A stretch of DNA of 41,477 nt from a virus. The stretch covers positions 1 to 41,477 of the IMG/VR virus record IMGVR_UViG_3300050821_006051; one strand, written 5' to 3'. Shown piece after piece: positions 1 to 41,477 of this stretch (position 1 is the first letter of the stretch; every line of letters starts with the position of its first letter). The position numbers and the translations under genes were made by a program. Under the pieces are notes generated by a model that searched no databases, was not told the origin of the DNA, and was given only the letters and a program-made list of their open reading frames with translations.

Positions 1-93
1 GCGGCGGGGGCGGCGGCGGCGGGGTCGGCGGCGGGGTCGGCGGCGCGGTCGGCGGCGCGGTCGGCGGAGTCGGCGGCGTGGTCGGCGGCCTAC
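1..93 (+). repeat. GCG/TCG-rich coding tandem repeat (left end)
   Basis: Very GC-rich degenerate tandem repeat built on GGCGGCGNGGTC-type units, encoding Ala-Ala-X-Ser. It matches the repeat at 41384-41477 and marks the assembly junction. The base composition is far from that of the rest of the genome. Confidence 0.85.
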
Positions 94-141
94 GATAATT
101 TTGCTGACGAATTAATAAAAATCCTAAAGGGAACAAAATGA
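1..141 (+). CDS. C-terminal part of Ala/Ser-repeat protein (continues from 41084)
   Basis: Frame 1 is open from the first base and stops at 139-141, overlapping the ATG of the next gene. It encodes repeats of the type Ala-Ala-Arg/Gly/Glu/Trp-Ser followed by a unique tail (YDNFADELIKILKGTK). The same repeats end the gene that starts at 41084, so this is the far end of one gene split by opening a circular or redundant sequence. Joining the two ends directly does not keep the frame (394 + 141 bases), so the true repeat number is uncertain and some repeat was probably collapsed or truncated. A 24-base stretch is shared by both ends. Repeats of this kind are known in small phage proteins, some labelled 'putative immunity protein'. 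No function is proposed. Confidence 0.75.
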   Translation, partial: AAGAAAAGSAAGSAARSAARSAESAAWSAAYDNFADELIKILKGTK

Positions 142-1232
142 ATCTTGAAATCCATTGTTCAGTACTAGCTCGCCCTATGGTTTGTGCGGGATCTCTTTTC
201 TTCACCGACCTTATCCCTGATGAGTCCTCACCTCCAGCAATGGAGGGGACTGCGTTTGGTGAGTACGCAGAGAAACTTCTCACCTGCCAACCAATCGGCA
301 CGCACGCTAAAAATGGTGTCGCATTTGATGAGGACATGAAATTCTATGCGATGCCAATAGTCCAAAACATCGTCGACCGTGCGCAGACTGAAGTCTCATG
401 TGAGCAGAAATGTGATTGGATGACTAGATCTGGAATTTGGATCAGAGGTCAGTCAGACGCTACTTACACGATGGAAGGCAACACACTTTGCATTGATGAC
501 TTCAAATACGGTTGGGGACTTGTCGAGGCTCCCAAGAATTGGCAATTGTTAGGTTATGCAATTGGTGAAGTGATCAGACGTCAGATTGCATTTGAAACCA
601 TTAGAATGAGAATCTTTCAACCACGTCCGCACCACGAAGACGGACCAATTAGAGAATGGATTATTTCTTATGCGGAACTCCTTGGCTTCAAAGAAGAAAT
701 CGAAGCGCGCATGGACCAAATCAAAGCGGGAGAAAAATCTCTCGTCACCGGTCCTAAATGCAAATATTGTCCTGCGGCAGCTAGACATTGCCCTGCTCTC
801 AGTAAATCGTTCTATCGCGGAGTCGAAATCGCACATGAATTCATGCAAGACAATATCGACGAAAAAGAATTGTCATTCCAACTTGATCTTGTTGCGCGAG
901 TTACTGAGATTCTTAAAATCAAATCGGACTCTCTTACTGCACTAGCGGTCGATCGTATAAAGCAGGGGAAAATTATCCCCAATTACGTCAGTGAAGCTAA
1001 ATTAGGAGACAGAAAGTGGAAGAGCGGAATAACACCTGATGCAATCAAAGCGATGACTGGCAAGAATGTCATGCGTGAGGAGATGTTAAGTCCTGCACAG
1101 GCCGAGAAAGTCGGCGTACCAAAGGAGTTTATCGCAGCGCTGGTAGATAGGCACTTCGTTGGAAATAAGGTTTGTCGCAAAGATAGTACTAAACTTGGAA
1201 ACGCCATATTTGGCGGGGAGCAACCGAAATGA
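138..1232 (+). CDS. DUF2800/Cas4-like PD-(D/E)XK nuclease
   Basis: A 364-residue protein resembling the DUF2800 family of phage nucleases related to RecB/Cas4. The core motif is visible as DDFKYGWG followed by VEAPKNWQLLGYA (about residues 118-140), fitting the Asp...Asp-X-Lys and downstream Gln-X-X-X-Tyr motifs of this fold. Near residue 213 there is a Cys cluster (CKYCPAAARHC) typical of the 4Fe-4S or Zn site of Cas4-like nucleases. It probably processes DNA ends during replication or recombination. The start has a good ribosome site (AAAGGG, 6 bases before the ATG) and overlaps the stop of the preceding repeat gene. The 3' end overlaps the next gene by ATGA. Next to a DUF2815-like gene, as is common in phages. 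Confidence 0.8.
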   Translation: MNLEIHCSVLARPMVCAGSLFFTDLIPDESSPPAMEGTAFGEYAEKLLTCQPIGTHAKNGVAFDEDMKFYAMPIVQNIVDRAQTEVSCEQKCDWMTRSGIWIRGQSDATYTMEGNTLCIDDFKYGWGLVEAPKNWQLLGYAIGEVIRRQIAFETIRMRIFQPRPHHEDGPIREWIISYAELLGFKEEIEARMDQIKAGEKSLVTGPKCKYCPAAARHCPALSKSFYRGVEIAHEFMQDNIDEKELSFQLDLVARVTEILKIKSDSLTALAVDRIKQGKIIPNYVSEAKLGDRKWKSGITPDAIKAMTGKNVMREEMLSPAQAEKVGVPKEFIAALVDRHFVGNKVCRKDSTKLGNAIFGGEQPK

Positions 1233-1474
1233 GTAGATTTGATTATGTGAAATACGACGATCGCGCGATGAAAGATCAAGAAAATGCAAAGCATCTTGTC
1301 GCGCGATTAGAGCAAACAATCAATGCAGTTGAAAGTAAAGAAGCCGGGAGAGCTAAATCTCTCGCTTTGACTAAACTAGAAGAATGCTACATGTGGATCG
1401 GTAAAGCCGTTCGCGATGATCAAATCGCTCGCAACGGGACTGCATCGCTCCAAGAAGAAAGAAGGAACTCATGA
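1229..1474 (+). CDS. Acb2/Tad1-type hairpin protein, candidate anti-CBASS sponge
   Basis: An 81-residue protein whose C-terminal half (AKSLALTKLEECYMWIGKAV at about residues 43-62, followed by RDDQIARNG) closely resembles the conserved helix of the Acb2 (DUF7681) family, in which RxxSLALTKLEEAxMW is the hallmark. Acb2 proteins bind cyclic di- and trinucleotides and block CBASS defence. The two predicted helices of a helical hairpin (about residues 15-35 and 42-65) are visible. It overlaps both neighbours by ATGA, so it is translated with the nuclease and ssDNA-binding genes. The family assignment is from recognised motif similarity; nucleotide binding is inferred. Confidence 0.65.
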   Translation: MSRFDYVKYDDRAMKDQENAKHLVARLEQTINAVESKEAGRAKSLALTKLEECYMWIGKAVRDDQIARNGTASLQEERRNS

Positions 1475-2418
1475 GTAACGTATCTGAAGGTAAGTCAGTA
1501 ATGGTAACTGGACGAATTGTTTGGACATGTGGACGCACTGTCTTCGATGGCAAATTAAATGTCGATGACCGCACCAAGCTGCCGAAGCTAAACGCTAAAG
1601 GTGAGCAAACGCAGCAGTATGGCTTTGGTCTCGCTGTCGCTAAGACAGAGCTTGCACCGGGTAAGTCTGGTGAGCCTCTGTGGAATGCGATCCATGAGCA
1701 AGCGTTTGTGATTTATCCATCTCGTCAAATGCCTCCAGCGTTCGCTTGGAAGTACAAAGACGGTGATGGAGTGGATCATAACGGTGCACCTTTTAATACC
1801 CGTGAAGGTTACGGCGGTCATTTGATCTTTGCCTGCACCACTGGAATTCCAATAAAATTCTTCCGCTTTGAGAACGGCAATAACATTTTGACCAATGAGG
1901 GAATTAAGTGCGGAGACTATGTCAACGTACAGATAAACGTGGTCGCGCACGCTGCTGTCGGTCAAGGGAAGCCTGGAGTTTACCTCAACCCTAATGCGGT
2001 GCAGTTCCTCGGTTACGGTAAAGAGATTATCAACACTCCCTCTGGAGACCAGCTATTCGGCGTACAAGCTCCACCGCTGCCTCCAGGAGCAAGTGCTACC
2101 CCTTTAGCTCCACAGCCGGGAATGTTGGTGCCTCAAGCTCCTGTTGGTTATGCGGCTCCTCCGCAGCAGCCGACGGGATTTCCTGCTCCGAGTGCTCCAC
2201 AGCAATTCCAAGCACCGCAGGGTTATCCTGGGCCAGGTCCCTCGGCATCACCTGGTAGTCCACCGCCTCCAAGTAATTACGGAGTGATTCCTCCGGCTTT
2301 ACAGCCTCCTACACAGGGTTATGCACAGCCTGGAGTCCCCGCAGGTTATCCGCCAGCGCATCAGAACGGTGCGCCGCAGATGCCCGGAGGTTTCCCGCCT
2401 TATAATCCACCAAGATAA
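1471..2418 (+). CDS. DUF2815-like ssDNA-binding protein with Pro-rich tail
   Basis: A 315-residue protein. Residues 1 to about 190 look like the DUF2815/phage ssDNA-binding group, an OB-type protein commonly encoded beside DUF2800 nucleases. The N-terminal segment with VMVTGRIVWTCGRTVFDGK and the GEPLWNAIHEQA region fit this. Residues from about 195 to the end are low in complexity, rich in Pro, Gln, Gly and Ala, and probably disordered. The tail ends PPYNPPR and lacks the acidic tip of bacterial SSB. It likely coats ssDNA during replication or recombination with the polymerase encoded downstream. The start overlaps the preceding stop (ATGA), with AAGGAA upstream. Confidence 0.65.
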   Translation: MSNVSEGKSVMVTGRIVWTCGRTVFDGKLNVDDRTKLPKLNAKGEQTQQYGFGLAVAKTELAPGKSGEPLWNAIHEQAFVIYPSRQMPPAFAWKYKDGDGVDHNGAPFNTREGYGGHLIFACTTGIPIKFFRFENGNNILTNEGIKCGDYVNVQINVVAHAAVGQGKPGVYLNPNAVQFLGYGKEIINTPSGDQLFGVQAPPLPPGASATPLAPQPGMLVPQAPVGYAAPPQQPTGFPAPSAPQQFQAPQGYPGPGPSASPGSPPPPSNYGVIPPALQPPTQGYAQPGVPAGYPPAHQNGAPQMPGGFPPYNPPR

Positions 2419-2428
2419 AATGTCCCTA

Positions 2429-2460
2429 GGTGGCGCTTGTGACTGAGCGCTGCCGTTTTA
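2429..2460 (+). terminator. Stem-loop after the ssDNA-binding gene
   Basis: A 9-bp stem (2429-2437 with 2446-2454, two G-U pairs) and an 8-base loop, followed by GTTTT. It lies in the only sizeable gap of this operon, just before the ribosome site of the next gene. The short U run suggests a weak terminator, attenuator or mRNA-stabilising hairpin. Confidence 0.5.
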
Positions 2461-2478
2461 ACCAAGGAAAAACCAATT

Positions 2479-2712
2479 ATGAAAGCTTACATAGCTATCG
2501 AACCTCCAGTGATCATTCTCACCGAGGCGGATTTACAAGAGAGACTTAACAATGCTATCGCATCTGCAAAAACAATAGCTATTGAAGAGTTAGCGTGTGA
2601 TTTGATTTTAGCAGTCGCTTATCAAAACGCTTGGGAAGAATTTGTCGAGTCGTTCCCTGAGGGCTCGCCGATTCGCACAGCATTTGGAAGATTAAAGGTG
2701 CGAGATTTGTGA
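2479..2712 (+). CDS. Small protein before DNA polymerase
   Basis: A 77-residue protein not recognised as any family. It is acidic and mostly helical, with no signal peptide or membrane segment. AAGGA lies upstream in a leader that also carries TTAACCAAGG, a motif repeated in two other leaders of this genome. Its stop overlaps the GTG start of the polymerase gene (GTGA), so the two are probably translated together. Confidence 0.7.
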   Translation: MKAYIAIEPPVIILTEADLQERLNNAIASAKTIAIEELACDLILAVAYQNAWEEFVESFPEGSPIRTAFGRLKVRDL

Positions 2713-4661
2713 ATTTATATCTATGGGATTTGGAAACATTTAATAATTGTTATTACTTCACTGGTAAATTTCAGGGAAGTAATGAACATCAAGTCTATGA
2801 AATTTCAGAGAGAACTAATCAGCGCACCGAGCATTTATCTTGGTTATCCTATTTGCAGAATACCGGCTGTCACATGGTAGGATTCAATTCTCTCAACTTT
2901 GATTATCCAATTTTGCATGAGCTTTTGAACAATCCTTATACTTTTGGTTACACTACGGCTTATTTAATGGCTCAGAAAATCATTGGCTCGCAGTCGTACT
3001 GGCAAAATCCTCATGCTATTCGAATGAGTGATAGACTTATTCCGCAAATTGATTTGGTGAAAGTGAACCATTTTGATAATCCAGCAAGACGCTGCAGTTT
3101 AAAATCTCTTCAGTTCGCAATGCGAAGTGAATCAGTTGAAGATCTCCCTTATGATCCAAATATTCCACTTACTTATGATCAGATGGACAATCTTCGTGCC
3201 TACAACTTGCACGACGTGACTGAGACTGAGAAATTCCTCGGCAAGTGTCGCTCGCAAATCAACCTTCGCAAAGAGCTTCTCGACCAAGGTATTCTCTCAG
3301 GCGACGTGTTGAACTTCTCCGATGTTAAGATCGGCACAGAGTACCTCATTCGCAAAATTGGCAGAGCGAAATGTTTCGTTAAAGGCTCAACGCCAAGACA
3401 AACCCAAAGACAGTCCGTGGAGTTTAAAAATGTTATTCTTCCTAAAATCTCTTTTCGCACCGAGCCGTTTGAACAAGTCCTCGATTGGTTTAAGTCCCAA
3501 ACTTTATGGATCGGTAAGGAAGAAAAACCCAAGCTTGAAGCAAAACTTGCTGGTCTTGAATTCACATTTGGTCTCGGTGGATGTCACTCCTCTGTTGAAA
3601 ATAAACGATATGTCTCGACTGACACGCACGTTATCAAAGACATTGACGTCTCAGGAATGTACGTCGCGATTGCCGTCGCCAATGGTTTTTACCCGGAACA
3701 TCTCGGTCAGGATTTCACAATAGCCTACAAAGGTCTTCAGACCGATCGCAAGCAGTACGCTAAAGGTACTGTGATGAATTTGGTTTTGAAATTAGCAGGG
3801 AATGGTGTTTTTGGAAATAGCAATAATTCTTTCTCCCCGTTCTATGATCCGAAATACCAACTTTCTGTTACTCTCAATGGGCAGCTCCAGCTCCTTCAAT
3901 TGGTTGAAGTCTTGTCCCTCATCCCAGGTGTCGAAATTATTCAAGCCAACACCGACGGCATCACCGCATTGGTTCCTCGTGAACTCGAACATTTCTTTAA
4001 TCTATGGAAAAGTGAGTGGGAAATTGGAACTGGACTCAAACTTGAAGAAGTGGAGTATTCAACTGTCTGGCAGTCAGACGTAAATAATTTCTTGGCTATT
4101 GACAGCAAAGGGAACATAAAGCGCAAGGGTCGCTATTGGTATCCAATCACCGAAGACGACATGCACGGCGGCTCTGGCTCTAATTGGAACAAAGATTTCT
4201 CCAATATGTCAGCGCAAAAAGGTATCGAACAATGCCTTTTGACTGGTATCGCACCGGAAGACATTGTCTATTTAATCACCGATCCATTTGATTTTATGTT
4301 GCGATACAAAACTCCGTCTGGTTCTAAGGTCTTCATTGGCGAATATGAAATGTCTAAGACGGTTAGATATTACGTCTCTACCGAAGGTCAACCAATGAAG
4401 AAAATCACACCGGCTAAAGGTGTTGGTTTTAAGAGAAAGGCTAAACTCACCGACGCGTATTATGACAGCATTCTAGCTACGATACAAGACGGCGCCTGGG
4501 ACAGTAGGATACACACCAAAAATAAATCAGTCTATGAAGAAACAACGACATCAATTGAAAGCGGACGTCTAGTTAGGTGTTGCAATCATGCAGACGATTT
4601 TAATTGGCGTGACGTCGATTTTGATTTTTACGCGAAAGAGATTAGGAAATTATTGATATGA
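2709..4661 (+). CDS. Family B DNA polymerase with 3'-5' exonuclease
   Basis: A 650-residue replicative polymerase. The exonuclease domain shows Exo I (WDLETF, Asp7 and Glu9), Exo II (GFNSLNFDYPIL, Asp65) and Exo III (YNLHD, Tyr165 and Asp169), a DEDDy arrangement. The polymerase part shows motif A (DIDVSGMY, Asp313), motif B (KLAGNGVFGNSNN, Lys361) and motif C (NTDGI, Asp416), followed by KRKGRYW near 471. NTDG in place of the usual DTDS is typical of one group of phage family B enzymes. The GTG start overlaps the previous stop. No helicase, primase or sliding clamp gene was recognised, so the enzyme must borrow host factors or use unrecognised ones. Confidence 0.92.
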   Translation: MNLYLWDLETFNNCYYFTGKFQGSNEHQVYEISERTNQRTEHLSWLSYLQNTGCHMVGFNSLNFDYPILHELLNNPYTFGYTTAYLMAQKIIGSQSYWQNPHAIRMSDRLIPQIDLVKVNHFDNPARRCSLKSLQFAMRSESVEDLPYDPNIPLTYDQMDNLRAYNLHDVTETEKFLGKCRSQINLRKELLDQGILSGDVLNFSDVKIGTEYLIRKIGRAKCFVKGSTPRQTQRQSVEFKNVILPKISFRTEPFEQVLDWFKSQTLWIGKEEKPKLEAKLAGLEFTFGLGGCHSSVENKRYVSTDTHVIKDIDVSGMYVAIAVANGFYPEHLGQDFTIAYKGLQTDRKQYAKGTVMNLVLKLAGNGVFGNSNNSFSPFYDPKYQLSVTLNGQLQLLQLVEVLSLIPGVEIIQANTDGITALVPRELEHFFNLWKSEWEIGTGLKLEEVEYSTVWQSDVNNFLAIDSKGNIKRKGRYWYPITEDDMHGGSGSNWNKDFSNMSAQKGIEQCLLTGIAPEDIVYLITDPFDFMLRYKTPSGSKVFIGEYEMSKTVRYYVSTEGQPMKKITPAKGVGFKRKAKLTDAYYDSILATIQDGAWDSRIHTKNKSVYEETTTSIESGRLVRCCNHADDFNWRDVDFDFYAKEIRKLLI

Positions 4662-4906
4662 AAAATATGTTTAGTCCTACGGAAATGAAAGTGTTAAAAA
4701 TCCTCGGTCGAAAGAAAATGACGATCTCAGAGATCACGACTAAGTTGTGCGGTAAACATAAAAAGTCAATCAACGCTGGCAATATCGTCGCTTACTTTAT
4801 TAGACGTATCAATATGAAATGTAAGTTCCATAAATTAGATTGGTTTTTAAACGGCAAAGGTGCCGGGCGTTTAGGACGCACGGTCTGGAGGAGTAAGAAA
4901 GTATGA
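4658..4906 (+). CDS. Small winged-helix DNA-binding protein
   Basis: An 82-residue basic protein. Residues 5-60 (SPTEMKVLKILGRKKMTISEITTKL, then a basic helix around NIVAYFIRRI) have the pattern of a winged helix-turn-helix domain. It overlaps the polymerase and HU genes by ATGA at each end, so it belongs to the replication operon. It may be a transcription factor or an accessory DNA-binding protein. It is one of the few candidates for the protein that reads the operator motifs at 39056-39533. Confidence 0.65.
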   Translation: MKNMFSPTEMKVLKILGRKKMTISEITTKLCGKHKKSINAGNIVAYFIRRINMKCKFHKLDWFLNGKGAGRLGRTVWRSKKV

Positions 4907-5175
4907 ATAAGCAACAGTTGATCAATTTATTAAGCGATGCGGAGTCTACCACTAAAGCAGATGCAGAGCGAATGTTAAACTCTGTTCTCACTCTTATTAC
5001 GAGTGTCATAGCTTCTGGTGAAGAAATGAAACTCATTGGTTTTGGCACGTTTATCAGAGCTAAACGTAAGGCTCGCAATGGTAGGAATCCAAAGACTGGT
5101 GAACCGATGAAAATAGAAGCGTGCTATTATCCAAAATTCAGACCAGGTGAGAAATTTAAGGAAATTGTGAAATGA
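4903..5175 (+). CDS. HU/IHF-family DNA-binding protein
   Basis: A 90-residue protein with the full HU/IHF fold. The N-terminal helices (MNKQQLINLLSDAESTTKAD) are followed by the conserved IGFGTF turn and an arm with ARNGRNPKTGEPMKIEA, near the usual GRNPxTGE signature. HU proteins bend and compact DNA and assist replication initiation, recombination or packaging. The length is normal for the family. ATGA overlaps on both sides show coupling with the winged-helix gene and the membrane protein gene. Confidence 0.93.
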   Translation: MNKQQLINLLSDAESTTKADAERMLNSVLTLITSVIASGEEMKLIGFGTFIRAKRKARNGRNPKTGEPMKIEACYYPKFRPGEKFKEIVK

Positions 5176-6137
5176 TGGATGGCTCGCGTGATCTACAGCT
5201 TTTAATCTGCGGTCTTCTCTTTGCTATTATCATCCCGTTCTTTAGCAAAGTTCCGAAGGCGCTGTTGATCCCGCTCCTTTACTTCACGGTGCACGCGGCT
5301 TGGTTTGCGTTTAACCGTGATGCATTTGACCAAGACATCAATCCAATAACAAGACTCTCGATGCACATTAACGCACTGGAAGTCTTTGTCATGCTGATTT
5401 GTTTCCCTTTATTTATCTCACGTTTACCAATACTCATGAAGGCTTTCGTTCTCGGTGGAATTTATTGCATGATGCTCTTTGACTCAGCTCTTTTTGCATT
5501 TGGTCGCGGCGGTGTTTTATTTACTTGGCCTACATTCGAGTGTGCAATGATGGCTTGTTTCATTCCAGTGGTCTTTAGAGTGCGCTGGAAGCTGGCGGTT
5601 CCACTTCTCATTCCAATTATCGGACTGCACGCACTCACCGCCGCGACCTGCGCTCTTGTTGGGATGAGCACTTACCTTAAAAAGCGTTGGGCGGTTATTT
5701 TCATCCCTGTGATTTTAACTGTGTTGTTCATCATAAAGCCGTTCTTCACTTTAGCGTTAAGCGAGCGTTGGGAGATGTGGACCCAGTATTTCAATTGGTT
5801 CTCAATGATCCCTCATGCTTGGCTGACTGGTGTTGGACCGGGGTCATTTGAGGAATTAGGGCCATTGTTTAGAAGTGCGACGGCGCACCAATACGTGCTG
5901 ATGCACAATGATTATTTGCAGATTTTATTTGAAACTGGTGTCCCAGGACTCTTGATGTTCTTATGGGTTTGCGGATATTTATTATGGGCGACAAGGTTAA
6001 AGCTTGTTTACTTCTCTTCTCTCGTTGCCGTAATGCTTTGCATGTTGACGTATTTCCCCTTGCATTTCTTCACAAGCCAATTAATGTTACTTTTTTTAAT
6101 TGACGAGAGTTTATACAATGACCCAATTATTGATTGA
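5172..6137 (+). CDS. O-antigen ligase/polymerase-like membrane protein (Wzy_C/WaaL family)
   Basis: A 321-residue integral membrane protein with about nine to ten hydrophobic segments. The C-terminal half holds the family signature in order: SERWEMW (about 197-203), GVGPGSFEE (220-228), HNDYLQILFETGVPGL (245-260) and further membrane segments. These match the Wzy_C domain of O-antigen ligases and polymerases, including the conserved Arg and the periplasmic His. It would act in the inner membrane on undecaprenyl-linked glycans. It is shorter than usual cellular WaaL proteins (about 400 residues). In a phage it may alter the LPS of the infected cell and so exclude related phages. It overlaps the HU gene (ATGA) and the phosphatase gene. 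Confidence 0.82.
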   Translation: MMDGSRDLQLLICGLLFAIIIPFFSKVPKALLIPLLYFTVHAAWFAFNRDAFDQDINPITRLSMHINALEVFVMLICFPLFISRLPILMKAFVLGGIYCMMLFDSALFAFGRGGVLFTWPTFECAMMACFIPVVFRVRWKLAVPLLIPIIGLHALTAATCALVGMSTYLKKRWAVIFIPVILTVLFIIKPFFTLALSERWEMWTQYFNWFSMIPHAWLTGVGPGSFEELGPLFRSATAHQYVLMHNDYLQILFETGVPGLLMFLWVCGYLLWATRLKLVYFSSLVAVMLCMLTYFPLHFFTSQLMLLFLIDESLYNDPIID

Positions 6138-6561
6138 AATAGACGGCTCTGGACACACTCTAAGTCGTGGACCAAGACCTCGCACTAGTGACGACTTTGC
6201 TTCAATTAAAGCTGAGACGATTATCAACCTTGAAAAGGGATGGTTTGAATTCCTGCACGGAAGATCTTATCAAGAAGATATTTGGTGTGAGAAGAGAGGT
6301 AAGTCCATCTTTCATCTGCCGTTGAGTACCTTCCACGCTCCTACAGAATTTGAGGTCAGTGAGTTTTTACGAGGTGTAAGGCTTGCGATGGTTAACGGCT
6401 CGGTTTACTTTCACTGCGAGCACGGAGTGGACCGCACCGGTTTCATGGCCGCAGCGTATCGAATAAGATGTATGGGTTGGGCTAAAGCCGCTGCAGTTAG
6501 AGAGATGTTAGACTGCGGATTTAATATGTTCCTGTACGCGTCGTGGATTGGTAAACTCTAA
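6118..6561 (+). CDS. Cys-based (tyrosine/dual-specificity type) protein phosphatase
   Basis: A 147-residue protein with the phosphatase signature HCEHGVDRTG (His99, Cys100, Arg106), the Cys-X5-Arg P-loop of tyrosine and dual-specificity phosphatases. The segment before it (KSIFHLPLSTF) takes the place of the acid loop but shows no clear WPD-type Asp, so the general acid is uncertain. The size is close to small dual-specificity enzymes. The ATG at 6118 is chosen because it starts the conserved frame and overlaps the membrane protein gene by 20 bases. A substrate cannot be deduced. Position beside the O-antigen ligase-like gene allows a role in control of surface glycans or in a host signalling takeover. 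Confidence 0.85.
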   Translation: MTQLLIEIDGSGHTLSRGPRPRTSDDFASIKAETIINLEKGWFEFLHGRSYQEDIWCEKRGKSIFHLPLSTFHAPTEFEVSEFLRGVRLAMVNGSVYFHCEHGVDRTGFMAAAYRIRCMGWAKAAAVREMLDCGFNMFLYASWIGKL

Positions 6562-6800
6562 TGGAGCGTAAACCTTGGATCAAAATAATTTGTGCTGAGT
6601 GCGGTGTCGAGTACCAACTCCCGCCGTCGACGTATAACACTAGAATTAGAAAAGCTATTACCGGAAAACTTTATTGTTCAATAAAATGCATGGGTAAAGG
6701 AGTCAGTAAACGCCATGAGCAGAGAAGAAAAGATCAAGAAGCGGCGGGACTTTTGGGAAGCCAAGTTTCAGGAGTTCGACGCTCAAATGAAAATCAATAA
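6561..6800 (+). CDS. Small Zn-finger-like protein
   Basis: A 79-residue basic protein with CAEC (about 11-14) and CSIKC (about 39-43), a spacing that suits a small zinc ribbon similar to those near phage HNH proteins. No nuclease residues follow. TAATG overlap with the phosphatase gene. Its 3' part overlaps the next small gene by 86 bases in another frame. Confidence 0.6.
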   Translation: MERKPWIKIICAECGVEYQLPPSTYNTRIRKAITGKLYCSIKCMGKGVSKRHEQRRKDQEAAGLLGSQVSGVRRSNENQ

Positions 6801-6885
6801 CGAAGTTCTCGTGCGCAAAGCTATGAGAGAGGCCATTCAAATGGCCGACAAAGTCCTTGCTCTGAAAGGATCGCGGAAGGAATAG
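6715..6885 (+). CDS. Small charged helical protein
   Basis: A 56-residue protein (MSREEKIKKRRDFWEAKF...ALKGSRKE), highly charged and probably a single long helix. It begins inside the preceding Zn-finger-like gene, with AAAGGAG about 15 bases upstream, and ends at 6883-6885. It has good codon structure but no recognised family. A third reading frame open over this length with a tight junction to the next gene makes it likely to be real. Confidence 0.55.
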   Translation: MSREEKIKKRRDFWEAKFQEFDAQMKINNEVLVRKAMREAIQMADKVLALKGSRKE

Positions 6886-6887
6886 GC

Positions 6888-7061
6888 ATGGAAGACGCAA
6901 TTAAGATATTCAATATTCATAGCGAAGAATCGGCATGGGATTGGATAGCTAAAGCGAATCAAAAAGGCTGGGCGGTTAAATCTATCGTGGCAATTGGAAC
7001 ATCAAGTTTTATTGTTCACATGTCGCGACCACTGACTAAAGCAGCAAAGGGGCAAGAATGA
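6888..7061 (+). CDS. Small protein of unknown function
   Basis: A 57-residue protein starting 2 bases after the preceding stop, with GGAAGGA as ribosome site. The sequence (MEDAIKIFNIHSEESAWDWI...) suggests a compact alpha/beta fold with a central WAVKSIVAIG strand region. It overlaps the next gene by ATGA. No family recognised. Confidence 0.6.
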   Translation: MEDAIKIFNIHSEESAWDWIAKANQKGWAVKSIVAIGTSSFIVHMSRPLTKAAKGQE

Positions 7062-7294
7062 GACTTTCATCGCCAATTTATCGCGCGAAATTATTTCCAA
7101 CAAGGCTCGAATTTATTTGCCCATTCTGCGAAGGCGATGATCAACACAAGGCGGTGATTCGCTTTGGCGCGGGCGGTTGGGAATTTAAGGGGAATGGATT
7201 GGAAGGAATTTCCATCAGACCTAGCTACAAAAGCGAACGCAAAGGCTGTCGATTGCATGTGACAATAACCGATGGCGAAATGATTTTTTCATGA
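7058..7294 (+). CDS. DUF6527-like small protein
   Basis: A 78-residue protein. CPFC near residue 21, a GGWEF segment, SIRPSY and a terminal KGCRLHVTITDGEMIF follow the same order as in the small phage DUF6527 group (CPCG...W...SPS...C-X-H-X-X-I-X-X-G). The Cys and His residues may bind zinc. ATGA overlap with the upstream gene, with AGGGG in front. The family match is by eye and the function of the family is unknown. Confidence 0.6.
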   Translation: MRLSSPIYRAKLFPTRLEFICPFCEGDDQHKAVIRFGAGGWEFKGNGLEGISIRPSYKSERKGCRLHVTITDGEMIFS

Positions 7295-7303
7295 ACAGGC
7301 ATC

Positions 7304-7561
7304 ATGCCTCGTGAGCAGGTGGTTGGAATGATGGAAATTGACAGCATGGATTTAGGTAAGGCAACTGTGACATTGCCTCTCGATAAATTAGATTCAATGA
7401 GAGAGTTGATCCATTCCCTCAATGAGGATTTGGCCGATCTTCGGCGAATGATCAAAGATAATCTTGGAATGGACCACGATCAACTAGAAGAGCGCGACCG
7501 AGCGCGGAGAAGCGCTATGAATGAATCTGCAATCATGAACCATTTTATGAGGCCAAAATGA
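7304..7561 (+). CDS. Small coiled-coil protein
   Basis: An 85-residue acidic protein with a long helix (about residues 25-75) showing heptad-like Leu spacing (LDKLDSMRELIHSLNEDLADL). Starts at 7304 or at the Met-Met pair at 7328/7331 are both possible. The ATG at 7304 has AGG five bases upstream. The stop overlaps the next start by ATGA. Function unknown. Confidence 0.6.
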   Translation: MPREQVVGMMEIDSMDLGKATVTLPLDKLDSMRELIHSLNEDLADLRRMIKDNLGMDHDQLEERDRARRSAMNESAIMNHFMRPK

Positions 7562-7827
7562 GCGAGCAGTCCAATACAGCAAGCAGCCAAGCACAAAAAT
7601 GGGCCGACGAGCGCGAAGATTTAATGCGTGGTCATCAATATAACGAGCATTACAAAGACGGTCTTGTTGAAGGATACACAGAGGGGCTACTCGCTCGCGA
7701 CGAGGAAGTGAAGTTACTTCGGGCTCTCTTGAAAGAGTGGTTCGACGACGATTATGATGGATGTGACTTATTGGATCGCACAGCGCAGGCTCTGAAGGCG
7801 TGCGCGGGGAAGGAAACACATGAGTGA
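7558..7827 (+). CDS. Small accessory protein with shared C-terminal module
   Basis: An 89-residue acidic protein of no recognised family. Its C-terminal ALKACAGKE is encoded by a 24-base stretch (7788-7811) repeated exactly at 9123-9146 in another small gene, so the gene seems to have been built by exchange of pieces. The middle has GHQYNEHYKDGLVEGYTEG. ATGA overlap upstream and a short overlap downstream. Confidence 0.65.
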   Translation: MSEQSNTASSQAQKWADEREDLMRGHQYNEHYKDGLVEGYTEGLLARDEEVKLLRALLKEWFDDDYDGCDLLDRTAQALKACAGKETHE

Positions 7828-8161
7828 CTCTTATCAGCCAATTTACGATGCGGTCAGAAGTCGCATCTCAGGATGCAATGTCGGGCAAGCTGTTGAGCAG
7901 GTGTTGATCAATATTCCTGGCGACATTGCCAGATACGCTCAAAACTGTTTTTCAGAAATAGCGTGCTCAATGGCCTCGCCGAGCGTTGTTTACAAGCCGG
8001 AAATATATCAAGACGGCGATCACTGGTGTTGTTTATATGGCAAAGACATACAGAGCGGGGTCGTTGGATTTGGCAAAAGCCCGGCAGAGGCGTGCGCGGC
8101 GTTTGATCGCGCATGGCACACACCACTTGCTTTGCGGGCAGAAGGCCAGGGGGAGAAATAA
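7820..8161 (+). CDS. Small accessory protein (WxxLYGxxxxxGVxGFG type)
   Basis: A 113-residue protein. The segment GDHWCCLYGKDIQSGVVGFG followed by KSPAEACAAFDRAW is a pattern found in many small phage proteins of unknown function. No catalytic motif is seen. AAGGAA lies before the ATG at 7820. Its stop TAA shares one base with the next ATG (8161). Confidence 0.7.
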   Translation: MSDSYQPIYDAVRSRISGCNVGQAVEQVLINIPGDIARYAQNCFSEIACSMASPSVVYKPEIYQDGDHWCCLYGKDIQSGVVGFGKSPAEACAAFDRAWHTPLALRAEGQGEK

Positions 8162-8436
8162 TGCCAAAAGATTTTCCATCACAATATGAATGCCAAGATG
8201 ACCCGCGCAAAGAACTCGCCGAGGCGAAGGCTGAGATCGAGCGCCTTGGTCGGCATGTGCGATGTTTTGAAATGCGCATTGATAACTTACAAGCTGAAAA
8301 CGGGCGGCTGAAAGCCGTTCTTAAGTTCTGGGCCAATGAGTCTGAGTGGTGCAATGTTCCGGTTGAGTTTCAGATAAAGCGAGCGCGTGAACTGCTTGCT
8401 TCGTTGGCGTGCGATGTGGGAGACAAAAAGACATGA
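8161..8436 (+). CDS. Coiled-coil accessory protein
   Basis: A 91-residue protein. Residues 15-60 form a strongly predicted coiled coil (KELAEAKAEIERL...IDNLQAENGRLKAVLKFW). The DNA of the N-terminal part (8209-8237) is repeated with one mismatch at 8881-8909 in a later gene, so the two are partial paralogs. The ATG at 8161 is chosen for the GGGGGAGA site before it and the TAATG overlap; an earlier ATG in the same frame at 8113 would lie inside the previous gene. Function unknown. Confidence 0.65.
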   Translation: MPKDFPSQYECQDDPRKELAEAKAEIERLGRHVRCFEMRIDNLQAENGRLKAVLKFWANESEWCNVPVEFQIKRARELLASLACDVGDKKT

Positions 8437-8699
8437 AACCGAGAGAGTGGTGGATAGTAAAAAGATCAGGTGGTCTTAAGGTCTACAATACAAGCTTTAG
8501 CGACCTCGGCACGCCTAAAGATGACCAATATGCACACGTCCGCGAAGTCATTCCCGGCGAGGTCTCGATCACTAAAAATCAATTAATCGAAGCAATTGGA
8601 TTCGCATGGGATCAAGATGAAGAGAACGACACAATTATCAACTATGATGAACTTTGGAGTCGTCTTGCTTTGCGGAACACCGATCAGGGGACAAAATGA
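8433..8699 (+). CDS. Small accessory protein
   Basis: An 88-residue protein (MKPREWWIVKRSGGLKVYNT...). The start at 8433 has GGGAGA in front and an ATGA overlap with the previous gene, which is better than the in-frame ATG at 8409. The C-terminal half (ITKNQLIEAIGFAWDQDEENDTI) resembles segments of small phage proteins of unknown function. Confidence 0.65.
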   Translation: MKPREWWIVKRSGGLKVYNTSFSDLGTPKDDQYAHVREVIPGEVSITKNQLIEAIGFAWDQDEENDTIINYDELWSRLALRNTDQGTK

Positions 8700-8851
8700 A
8701 CCAAATGCAGCAATTTATTCGAGACATGGCGCCTTTCTTCACGTGGCCTGATGTCTTTTGTTGGCTGTTACTTCTCGGCTTTGGCGTCTGGAAAATGTTT
8801 GACCTTATCGGCGCCGCCGGCAGATGGGCTGAAAGACAGGTCAAAAAATGA
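8696..8851 (+). CDS. Small single-span membrane protein
   Basis: A 51-residue protein with one hydrophobic segment (about residues 15-40, FTWPDVFCWLLLLGFGVWKM) and a short basic end (RWAERQVKK), giving a likely inner-membrane span with the C-terminus in the cytoplasm. ATGA overlaps with both neighbours. Role unknown. Confidence 0.6.
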   Translation: MNQMQQFIRDMAPFFTWPDVFCWLLLLGFGVWKMFDLIGAAGRWAERQVKK

Positions 8852-9153
8852 GCGTCAGTCAAGTTGAGGTAAATTTAGCAAAAGAACTCGCCGAGGTGAA
8901 GGCTGAGATTGAGCAATTGGATGAACTATGTAATGCGAGACTCGGCGCTTTAAAAATGCAGCTTAAAGAAAACGAGCGGCTGAGAGAGGCTCTGGAATTT
9001 TACGCTGATCCAGAAACGTATTTTGCAATTGCGTTTCTCCCTGACCCGCCTTGTGGTCCGTTTATCCATGACACTGATGATGTTGAGCCAGGGAAACCTG
9101 GCGCAGTGGCTCGCAGAGCGCTGGCTCTGAAGGCGTGCGCGGGGAAAGAATGA
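8848..9153 (+). CDS. Coiled-coil accessory protein, mosaic of neighbouring genes
   Basis: A 101-residue protein. N-terminal coiled coil (KELAEVKAEIEQLDEL) matching the gene at 8161 in DNA, a middle segment (LREALEFYADPETYF...FIHDTDDVEPGKPGAVARRAL) familiar from small phage and prophage proteins, and an ALKACAGKE end matching the gene at 7558 in DNA. The last gene of the rightward unit before the convergence point. Confidence 0.7.
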   Translation: MSVSQVEVNLAKELAEVKAEIEQLDELCNARLGALKMQLKENERLREALEFYADPETYFAIAFLPDPPCGPFIHDTDDVEPGKPGAVARRALALKACAGKE

Positions 9154-39169: not shown

Positions 39170-39219
39170 GCAACTATAGTCTTAGTTGGTCATCTCGATT
39201 GTAGTCGATTTAGCAATAC

Positions 39220-39228
39220 ACACTGTAT
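39220..39228 (+). promoter_or_regulatory. Operator-like motif copy 2 (ACACTGTAT)
   Basis: Exact motif copy, inverted relative to copies 3 and 4, with 38 bases between the centres of copies 2 and 3. Confidence 0.55.
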
Positions 39229-39257
39229 TTATAGCGCGTGAGGCACCCTAAAAGCTC

Positions 39258-39266
39258 ATACAGTGT
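39258..39266 (-). promoter_or_regulatory. Operator-like motif copy 3
   Basis: Exact motif on the minus strand (ATACAGTGT on plus), 15 bases centre to centre from copy 4. Confidence 0.55.
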
Positions 39267-39272
39267 GTTTAA

Positions 39273-39283
39273 ATACAGTGTAT
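39273..39283 (-). promoter_or_regulatory. Operator-like motif copy 4, palindromic
   Basis: ATACAGTGTAT, an odd palindrome with arms ATACA and TGTAT, the likely full form of the site. Confidence 0.55.
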
Positions 39284-39300
39284 GTGCTTAATAATGTGGC

Positions 39301-39500: not shown

Positions 39501-39533
39501 TTGACATCTCACACACTGTATAATACACTGTAT
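39501..39533 (+). promoter_or_regulatory. Candidate repressed promoter of the rightward unit
   Basis: TTGACA (39501-39506), 17 bases, then TACACT (39524-39529). Two operator-like motifs overlap it: copy 5 at 39513-39521 in the spacer and copy 6 at 39525-39533 (palindromic ATACACTGTAT from 39523) over the -10. This is the usual arrangement of a repressor-controlled phage early promoter. The gene at 39576 starts about 45 bases further on. Confidence 0.65.
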
Positions 39534-39575: not shown

Positions 39576-39731
39576 ATGCTCCGGAATTTCGAAGTCTATC
39601 TAGTGGCCGCACTATTAATCACCCTATTAGTTCTCATCATCGACATGGGAATCAAACTCGCGCCCGTCCATACTCAAGTCGAGTCTATGGTCCTACAAAA
39701 CGCATCTAATATCCCAACGGTGCAACCATGA
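39576..39731 (+). CDS. Small single-span membrane protein
   Basis: A 51-residue protein with one membrane span (about residues 7-27: VYLVAALLITLLVLIIDMGI) and a short polar end. The ATG at 39576 has AAGGA 7 bases upstream. It is the first gene of the rightward unit. The stop overlaps the next start (ATGA). As an early membrane protein it could serve superinfection exclusion, but no evidence beyond position exists. Confidence 0.65.
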   Translation: MLRNFEVYLVAALLITLLVLIIDMGIKLAPVHTQVESMVLQNASNIPTVQP

Positions 39732-40321
39732 GCTCACGCACACCACGTACAATCGCTGAGATCATCGAAGCCTATAACAATGAAGGTCTCTCAGCCGAAG
39801 AGTACAATACCGAGAATGAAGACTGTTCACTGGCCGAGTTTTGTCAATCCTTTGGCTATCATGAGTCTAACATCAACCAAGTGATCCGCGATGCCGACTT
39901 AGCTGATGAGACCAAAGCGCTGTTAACTGCACATGTATCTAAACATGGCTCGCGTGAGACGTTTAATCTATTAGCGAAGCATTGTGAGCTCAAGTGTGTC
40001 GGCATATATACTCAAACAAACGAAGTGTATTCAGTACAGATCGGTGAGATTGAACATCAGCCCGACGATAAACTAATCGAAGCCTATCTAAAGTTATCAC
40101 CTAAGAGTCAAGAGAAGGTTCGTAAAGCTTGTGACTGGCATATATCAGACTCAAGTTGTAAAGGTTGGCTTTACATCGGATGCGACTATGAGCGATGGGT
40201 GATGGTATGCGATGAGGACTCGCTACTAGGTGACTTGCCGACTAAGGGACATCTCACATCATACGATGGGACCGGATGCATAACTCGCCGGTCCCGTGCC
40301 AAGCTTAGTCTCGTATCATAA
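39728..40321 (+). CDS. Unknown early protein, possible DNA-binding
   Basis: A 197-residue protein of no recognised family. Residues about 33-60 (SLAEFCQSFGYHESNINQVI) look like a helix-turn-helix pattern, though weakly. The rest contains several Cys and Trp (KACDWHISDSSCKGWLYIGC). ATGA overlap with the upstream gene. Its position directly after the operator-controlled promoter fits an autoregulator, which is inferred only. Confidence 0.55.
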   Translation: MSSRTPRTIAEIIEAYNNEGLSAEEYNTENEDCSLAEFCQSFGYHESNINQVIRDADLADETKALLTAHVSKHGSRETFNLLAKHCELKCVGIYTQTNEVYSVQIGEIEHQPDDKLIEAYLKLSPKSQEKVRKACDWHISDSSCKGWLYIGCDYERWVMVCDEDSLLGDLPTKGHLTSYDGTGCITRRSRAKLSLVS

Positions 40322-40379
40322 GGTTAACTGATGAGACGTTAGATCGTCGAAACGTGGTCTCAACCGCCACGTATTAACC
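40322..40379 (+). ncRNA. Type I hammerhead ribozyme
   Basis: All parts are present in order. Stem I is GGTTAA (40322-40327) with TTAACC (40374-40379), 6 bp. The core CTGATGA is at 40328-40334. Stem II is GACG (40335-40338) with CGTC (40345-40348) and a 6-base loop. GAAA is at 40349-40352. Stem III is A40352-U40372 plus CGTGG (40353-40357) with CCACG (40367-40371) and a 9-base loop. The cleavage triplet is GTA, with A40373 the base before the expected cut. Every pair is Watson-Crick. It sits between two rightward genes, 20 bases before the ATG at 40400, so cleavage would leave a 26-base leader with a 5'-hydroxyl and AGAAGGA as ribosome site. Confidence 0.9.
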
Positions 40380-40399
40380 AAACCAGAAGGATATAAACC

Positions 40400-40618
40400 A
40401 TGTCGTACAATGAGTACACACGATCATTTGAGACTGAAATAGGCCGTATAGATATAGTCTATATGGGACCTGAAGAGACACAAGTATGGGTAAACGGATC
40501 ACGCGTCCTAATGCCTTCCCATGTCTTGAAACAAACCACTACAACCATCGTTCGTAAAGTGTGCGCGCTATATAAGAGCGCTGCATTGACTGGTGTTCGC
40601 ATCGGCGGTGTACGATGA
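40400..40618 (+). CDS. Small early protein downstream of the ribozyme
   Basis: A 72-residue protein (FETEIGRIDIVYMGPEETQVW...) of no known family, with a likely beta-hairpin start. Its leader follows the hammerhead ribozyme, so its mRNA would begin at 40374 after self-cleavage. SD AGAAGGA lies before the ATG. It overlaps the next gene by ATGA. Confidence 0.65.
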   Translation: MSYNEYTRSFETEIGRIDIVYMGPEETQVWVNGSRVLMPSHVLKQTTTTIVRKVCALYKSAALTGVRIGGVR

Positions 40619-41087: not shown

Positions 41088-41477
41088 AAAAACTAACGTA
41101 CCACCACATCAAAGCATTTAATCCGTGTTACGATCCGATTAAACACATACCATTGACTTATAACGGAACACTGACGGCGATTTTAAAGTTAAAAACCGTC
41201 CCCGCTAAAGACCGACTTTGGGCCGTGGTGCGCTCACCGCTCATGACTGACATGCAGCTAAAACTCTACGGGTTGGCTTGTGCGCGTATGTGCGAGGCTA
41301 ACTCAACGGACCCGCGAGTTAAGGCTTGCAATGATACCGTCGAGGCATTCCTAAAAGGTAAAGCAACTAAAGAAGAGCTTGAGTCGGCGCGGTCGGCGGC
41401 GCGGTCGGCGGCGCGGTCGGCGGCGGGGTCGGCGGCGGAGTCGGCGCGGTCGGCGGCGGAGTCGGCGGCGTGGTCGG
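41084..41477 (+). CDS. N-terminal part of Ala/Ser-repeat protein (continues at position 1)
   Basis: At least 131 residues before the window end. The unique part (KKLTYHHIKAFNPCYDPIKH...TNDTVEAFLKGKATKEELES-like region with ARMCEANSTDPRVKACNDTV) resembles small phage proteins that carry ARSAAWSAA repeats, sometimes called 'putative immunity protein'. The ARSAA-type repeats begin at about 41384. It overlaps the previous gene by ATGA. The end of the gene is at 1-141. Confidence 0.75.
   Translation, partial: MKKLTYHHIKAFNPCYDPIKHIPLTYNGTLTAILKLKTVPAKDRLWAVVRSPLMTDMQLKLYGLACARMCEANSTDPRVKACNDTVEAFLKGKATKEELESARSAARSAARSAAGSAAESARSAAESAAWS
41384..41477 (+). repeat. GCG/TCG-rich coding tandem repeat (right end)
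   Basis: Same kind of units as at 1-93. The last 24 bases recur exactly inside the first 93 bases of the window, which shows that the ends belong together. The frame relation is off by one base, so the repeat number is not reliable. Confidence 0.85.

What the first reader, a model, noticed from the sequence alone, without database searches (positions are those of the whole stretch)
40322..40379. Canonical type I hammerhead ribozyme in an early phage leader
The sequence folds into a complete hammerhead with all core bases (CTGATGA, GAAA, GTA triplet), perfect stems I (6 bp), II (4 bp) and III (6 bp including the A-U pair next to the cut). Hammerhead ribozymes are known from some phage genomes, but a self-cleaving RNA that splits an early operon just before a ribosome site suggests mRNA processing or differential stability of the two parts. 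Cleavage would free a 26-base leader with a 5'-hydroxyl that is poorly recognised by some decay enzymes.
Basis: partly seen in the sequence, partly recalled or inferred. Interest (0 to 1): 0.93.

Follow-up and report, generated by a model that had tools for sequence, protein, structure and literature searches.

The report
Self-cutting RNA between two phage genes
A 58-base stretch between two genes of an uncultured bacterial virus encodes a complete hammerhead ribozyme, an RNA that should cut itself and split the shared message just before the second gene; it belongs to a known but poorly understood group that we find, almost identically placed, at gene boundaries in about a hundred other viral sequences.

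Summary
Window 40322-40379 is a complete type I hammerhead: stem I 6 bp, stem II 4 bp, stem III 6 bp plus a G-U pair, intact CTGATGA and GAAA core, GTA triplet, predicted cut 40373/40374. It is not chance: a covariance model built from 30 other phage hammerheads, without the window, scores it 52.6 bits (E 3.3e-10), and no comparable site arose in 400 simulated windows. Rfam reports nothing, but Rfam's hammerhead models also stay below their cut-offs on obvious copies.

It lies between two genes, not in an operon leader. It starts one base after a stop codon, and the cut falls 26 bases before the next ATG. That placement is a rule: among 171 dereplicated hammerheads, the upstream stop sits at -12..+5 of the core in 138, and the cut-to-ATG distance has median 23 (interquartile 21-26). 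Some operons carry 5-9 copies, nearly all at gene boundaries.

Best explanation: self-cleavage cuts the polycistronic early mRNA into separately ended messages (inferred, not measured). Clustered phage hammerheads and this processing idea were published in 2011 (PMC3088659), so this is a new member of a known kind; the tight stop/cut/ATG geometry is the less familiar part.

The parts
40322..40379 (+). Complete type I hammerhead ribozyme
   Evidence: Read directly; covariance model R1, built without the window, 52.6 bits, E 3.3e-10; descriptor
40322..40327 (+). Stem I, 5' strand GGTTAA (pairs with 40374-40379 TTAACC)
   Evidence: Sequence
40328..40334 (+). Core CTGATGA (C3-A9)
   Evidence: Sequence; 145 of 171 relatives have the same letters
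40335..40348 (+). Stem II GACG/CGTC with 6-nt loop TTAGAT
   Evidence: Sequence; relatives usually have a 5-nt TNAAT-type loop
40349..40352 (+). Core GAAA (G12, A13, A14, A15.1)
   Evidence: Sequence
40352..40372 (+). Stem III, 6 bp plus one G-U pair, 7-nt loop CTCAACC
   Evidence: Sequence and minimum-energy fold
40371..40373 (+). Cleavage triplet GTA; predicted cut between 40373 and 40374
   Evidence: Hammerhead NUH rule; 27 of 171 relatives have GTA, 131 GTC. Cleavage itself not tested
40374..40399 (+). 26-nt leader left on the downstream RNA after the cut, with Shine-Dalgarno-like AGAAGGA at 40385-40391
   Evidence: Sequence; relatives: median 23 nt, IQR 21-26
39728..40321 (+). Upstream 197-aa ORF of unknown function; TAA stop at 40319-40321 touches stem I
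   Evidence: ORF list; no significant family match
39576..39731 (+). 51-aa ORF, probable membrane protein, first of the operon, overlaps the next ORF by 4 nt
   Evidence: Translation
40400..40618 (+). Downstream 72-aa ORF of unknown function, first gene of the released message
   Evidence: ORF list; no family match
39501..39529 (+). Sigma70-like promoter candidate of the operon (TTGACA-17-TACACT, 10 of 12)
   Evidence: Consensus scan; not more than chance numbers overall, so only a candidate

Best explanation
The feature is a type I hammerhead ribozyme at a gene boundary of a phage polycistronic early mRNA. Shown by sequence and comparison: the complete motif, its membership in a covarying phage hammerhead group, and its fixed geometry (stop codon flush with stem I, cut 26 nt before the next ATG). 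Inferred: once transcribed, it cuts itself between 40373 and 40374. The upstream message (51-aa and 197-aa ORFs) is left ending in stem-loops II and III with a 2',3'-cyclic phosphate. The downstream message starts with a 5'-OH and a short 26-nt leader holding the ribosome-binding site. In effect RNA processing does the work of a terminator plus an internal promoter, so the two parts of one transcript can have separate 5' and 3' ends, and probably separate lifetimes.
For: Complete core and stems; independent covariance score 52.6 bits, E 3.3e-10; no comparable site in 400 simulated windows. 171 dereplicated relatives: upstream stop at -12..+5 of C3 in 138; cut-to-ATG median 23 nt, IQR 21-26, in 162; opposite-strand control has 3 at 14-32 nt against 146. 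The cut-to-ATG distance holds for hammerheads the search pattern did not match. Operons with 5-9 copies, nearly all at junctions of small ORFs. In the window the neighbouring junctions are 4-nt overlaps, while this 78-nt gap is exactly ribozyme plus ribosome-binding site. Comparable prophage arrays cleave in vitro and in E. coli (PMC3088659).
Against: No cleavage or transcript data for this phage. Stem II has a competing pairing with the core (native stem II probability 0.39; stem I 0.29 with 20-nt flanks), though 42% of relatives are no better with flanks. The window has a single copy, so it splits the operon only once. The flanking genes have no relatives in the collections searched, so conservation of this junction could not be tested.
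Confidence: 0.7

Rival explanations
1. Translation-gated ribozyme: a ribosome terminating at the upstream stop, which lies in or against stem I, covers stem I and the core and holds the ribozyme unfolded. Cleavage then happens only when the upstream gene is not being translated, which links processing to translation.
For: Stop within -12..+5 of C3 in 138 of 171 relatives, often inside stem I (-3, 54 cases) or the core (+1, 28 cases); in the window the stop touches stem I.
Against: Compact phage genomes would give the same geometry, and the motif itself contains stops in two frames (TAA in stem I, TGA in the core), so an upstream ORF running into it ends there anyway. Hammerheads without TAA in stem I show looser placement (9 of 14 located stops at -12..+1). 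Nothing measured.
Confidence: 0.18
2. Degenerate or inactive hammerhead, or a passenger sequence element, with no effect on the phage.
For: Single copy in this genome; competing fold of stem II; GTA rather than the commoner GTC triplet; 6-nt instead of 5-nt loop II.
Against: All core positions and all three stems are intact; a decaying ribozyme would show core losses. GTA occurs in 27 of 171 relatives and in the Pelagibacter phage copies.
Confidence: 0.09
3. An ordinary mRNA hairpin: an intrinsic terminator, attenuator or ribosome-site-masking structure that resembles a hammerhead by accident.
For: It is a structured stretch just before a ribosome-binding site.
Against: No T-run and no terminator-like site in the region; the Shine-Dalgarno-like sequence lies outside the structure; chance match excluded.
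Confidence: 0.03

Closest known systems
Prophage/phage hammerhead ribozymes in clusters flanking genes (Perreault et al. 2011, PMC3088659)
   Same: Canonical hammerhead in phage transcripts, at boundaries of small genes; [quoted passage not shown]
   Different: The window has one copy. The paper passages read here do not state the stop-codon-flush placement or the narrow cut-to-ATG distance.
HHphage of haloviruses HF1/HF2 (PMC3088659)
   Same: Phage hammerhead a few bases (13 nt) upstream of the start codon of an early-region gene.
   Different: That one is a variant core linked by the authors to high salt; the window's core is canonical.
Pelagibacter phage HTVC019P/HTVC131P/Jormungand and Flavobacterium elemo phage hammerheads (found here)
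   Same: Type I, 45.9-51.6 bits with the same model; unannotated, or lying under a hypothetical protein, in GenBank.
   Different: In the Pelagibacter phages the ribozyme lies upstream of MarR, integrase and RNA polymerase genes with a longer annotated gap; the window's phage is not closely related to any phage record by its portal-like protein (below 60% identity to all, 25-28% in the listed rows).
Rfam RF00163 Hammerhead_1 and RF00008 Hammerhead_3
   Same: Same core and three-way junction.
   Different: The window is not detected by either model, nor are most clear phage copies at cut-off.

Membership tests
Hammerhead ribozyme, type I | Core CUGANGA ... GAAA with NUH cleavage triplet | tested here: met
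   CTGATGA, GAAA, GTA
Hammerhead ribozyme, type I | Three stems meeting at the core, stems II and III closed by loops, stem I open | tested here: met
   6/4/6(+G-U) bp; minimum-energy fold agrees
Hammerhead ribozyme, type I | Significant score with a covariance model of the family | tested here: met
   R1, window excluded from training: 52.6 bits, E 3.3e-10
Hammerhead ribozyme, type I | Reaches the curated cut-off of Rfam hammerhead models | tested here: not met
   No hit. Treated as lack of sensitivity, not as a defining failure, because clear multi-copy phage hammerheads also fail it
Hammerhead ribozyme, type I | Loop II / stem I tertiary contact | tested here: inconclusive
   Conserved A on both sides of stem I is present; loop II is a 6-nt variant of the usual 5-nt loop
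Hammerhead ribozyme, type I | Self-cleavage at H17 | not testable with these tools
   Needs an in vitro assay
Phage gene-boundary hammerheads (Perreault 2011 kind) | Lies between consecutive same-strand phage genes | tested here: met
   Stop 40319-21, ATG 40400; phage genes
Phage gene-boundary hammerheads (Perreault 2011 kind) | Stop flush with stem I and cut about 18-32 nt before ATG, as in the relatives found here | tested here: met
   Stop adjacent, cut-to-ATG 26 nt; relatives median 23
Phage gene-boundary hammerheads (Perreault 2011 kind) | Several copies in one operon (common, not obligatory) | tested here: not met
   Single copy in the window

The most novel reading that the evidence does not exclude
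Phage gene-boundary hammerheads are ribosome-sensing processing switches: the terminating ribosome on the stop codon built into or against stem I delays cleavage, and the fixed cut-to-AUG distance (about 23 nt) makes a standard 5'-OH leader. Processing and stability of each gene's mRNA would then be tied to translation of its neighbour, across many unrelated phages.
Probability: 0.18. Interest if true: 0.8.

Novelty: new member of a known kind. Interest (0 to 1): 0.5.

Why it matters
What bacterial and phage hammerheads do has been described as an open question (PMC6155905). The fixed placement seen here (stop codon flush with stem I, cut about 23 nt before the next ATG, up to 9 copies per operon) turns the general processing idea into specific predictions. 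A cultured Flavobacterium phage and several cultured Pelagibacter phages carry members and could be tested. It also shows that standard Rfam annotation misses this group.

Tried and rejected
Rfam at gathering score and at E<=10: no hammerhead; explained by model insensitivity. The snoRNA match (RF00536, 19.4 bits against a cut-off of 43) is chance. DNA and protein searches for relatives of the window's flanking genes and DNA polymerase found none, so this junction could not be compared between relatives. BLAST hits of a hammerhead query to Streptomyces phages cover only part of stems II/III and the model finds no hammerhead there. The other short spaced junction of the operon (2419-2478) was checked for a second hammerhead: none. 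Terminator reading rejected: no terminator-like site. The search pattern was suspected of creating the geometry; hammerheads not matched by the pattern, and those without TAA in stem I, show nearly the same cut-to-ATG distance, though in the latter set only 9 of 14 located stops lie at -12..+1. One Pfam call failed on a wrong frame and one paper search on a disallowed word.

Full report
What is there. Reading 40322-40379 base by base gives GGTTAA-CTGATGA-GACG-TTAGAT-CGTC-GAAA-CGTGGT-CTCAACC-GCCACG-TA-TTAACC. In hammerhead numbering this is stem I (6 bp), C3-A9, stem II (4 bp, 6-nt loop), G12-A14, A15.1, stem III (6 bp plus one G-U pair), G16.2 U16.1 A17, stem I. The order and the open stem I make it type I; the cut is expected between 40373 and 40374. 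The minimum-energy fold is the hammerhead, but stability by itself is not striking (z = -1.7), and the core can pair with the 3' strand of stem II, which competes.

Is it chance? The window holds a single match to the hammerhead descriptor. In 400 simulated windows with the same dinucleotide make-up the relaxed descriptor fired twice in total and never with stems of 6/4/6. A covariance model (R1) built from 30 phage hammerheads, the window not among them, scores the site 52.6 bits, E 3.3e-10; the next best site in the window has 14.4 bits. R1's E-values are rough because its calibration was shortened. Rfam 15 reports nothing. That silence is not informative, because the Rfam models score clear multi-copy phage hammerheads only about 12-36 bits, below their cut-offs of 34 and 48.5, and report none at cut-off in 15 loci, most of them with clear hammerheads.

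Relatives. Of 143 distinct matches, 106 form stems II and III strictly although the pattern did not ask for pairing there; many of the rest are hammerheads with one irregularity. With bystanders in the same loci there are 196 hammerheads in 116 sequences, 171 after dereplication. In an alignment of 30 of them, 12 of 15 pairs change on both sides; these were selected as paired, so the covariation counts and the 100% pairing should be read with that in mind. A's immediately flanking stem I on both sides (161 and 143 of 171) and a TNAAT-type stem II loop recur and probably mark a tertiary contact; the window has both A's and a 6-nt variant loop. Cultured phages with a member include Pelagibacter phages HTVC019P, HTVC131P and Jormungand EXVC012P and a Flavobacterium elemo phage.

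Placement. In the window the ribozyme begins the base after the TAA of a 197-aa ORF, and its cut lies 26 nt before the ATG of a 72-aa ORF with AGAAGGA ahead of it. The neighbouring junctions are ATGA overlaps; this 78-nt gap is exactly ribozyme plus ribosome-binding site. Across the 171 hammerheads the upstream stop is at -12..+5 of C3 in 138, and the cut-to-ATG distance is 23 (IQR 21-26) in the 162 that have a start within 100 nt; on the opposite strand only 44 have such an ATG and only 3 at 14-32 nt. The distance holds for the 55 that the search pattern did not match (median 24; 40 of 46 located stops at -12..+1). For the 18 whose stem I lacks TAA at the stop position the distance is similar (median 26) but stop placement is looser, 9 of 14. 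Some genomes carry 5-9 copies, nearly all at gene junctions and separated by one to a few small ORFs; the ORF calls there are mechanical.

Operon. The two ends of the contig carry the same SAA-repeat-type coding sequence, so the record is probably a circularly permuted or circular genome broken inside a repeat; the join was not proved. If so, the rightward operon from about 39,540 runs on into 1-9,153 with exonuclease, ssDNA-binding and DNA polymerase genes. A sigma70-like site lies at 39501-39529. 'Early' is therefore plausible but inferred.

Mechanism. The likeliest reading is self-cleavage of the polycistronic mRNA at a gene boundary. The type I layout leaves both hairpins on the upstream RNA, as a 3' end with a cyclic phosphate, and gives the downstream RNA a short 5'-OH leader with its ribosome-binding site. 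The motif and the geometry are shown; cleavage, the chemistry of the ends and any change in stability are inferred from established hammerhead chemistry and from published cleavage of comparable prophage arrays (PMC3088659). A more adventurous reading, that the ribosome on the stop codon gates cleavage, fits the geometry but is equally explained by genome compactness and by the stop codons that the motif itself contains.

What is known. Perreault et al. 2011 reported hundreds of bacterial hammerheads, many near prophage-type genes, clusters flanking single genes, the processing hypothesis, cleavage in vitro and in E. coli, and a phage hammerhead 13 nt before an early gene. A 2017 review lists the role of prokaryotic hammerheads as open (PMC6155905). 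The window is therefore a new member of a known kind. The abundance, the stop/cut/ATG rule and the Rfam blind spot are the added value; I found no paper stating that rule in the open-access library searched, which lacks most subscription journals, and supplements were not read.

Noticed in passing
L004 (IMGVR_UViG_3300028025_003604): 5496-5575, 6300-6378, 6740-6815, 7032-7110: Other gene gaps of a hammerhead-punctuated phage operon hold a second repeated element (mostly CCCCCGARCT..., a paired three-way-junction-like body, then CTMATYAAAA just before the next ATG) in the place where hammerheads sit. No Rfam match and no copy of the two-site pattern in IMG/VR; it could be another self-cleaving or processing element.
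   Followed up: partly
L004 3859-3911; MT497067.1 19043-19099 (minus strand): Below-cut-off matches to the type III model RF00008 (26.4 and 36.3 bits) suggest that these two phages also carry type III hammerheads besides type I.
   Followed up: partly
L038, L041, L049, L067, L072, L086, L093, L106, L110, L117, L135 (list): A recurrent variant core CTGATGA-T-GG...CC-GAAA: one extra T between A9 and stem II, with all stems otherwise intact. Seen in more than ten distinct matches; activity unknown.
   Followed up: no
window 1-90 and 41380-41477: Both contig ends lie in the same type of SAA-repeat coding sequence, so the record was probably broken inside a repeat of a circular or permuted genome, and the rightward operon continues from 41477 to 1.
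   Followed up: partly
window 39218-39285 and 39510-39533: Repeated and inverted ACACTGTAT/ATACAGTGT motifs around the divergent promoter region look like repressor operators.
   Followed up: no
window 2419-2478: The other short spaced junction of the operon carries a 10-bp hairpin followed by GTTTTAACCAAGGA; not a hammerhead. TTAACCAA precedes three rightward genes, at 2458, 39559 and 40374.
   Followed up: partly
L138, L139, L145, L146 (Pelagibacter phages): Type I hammerheads with a GTA triplet lie upstream of MarR-integrase-RNA polymerase genes, resembling the ardA/marR/integrase context described for Agrobacterium in PMC3088659; unannotated or under a hypothetical protein in GenBank.
   Followed up: partly
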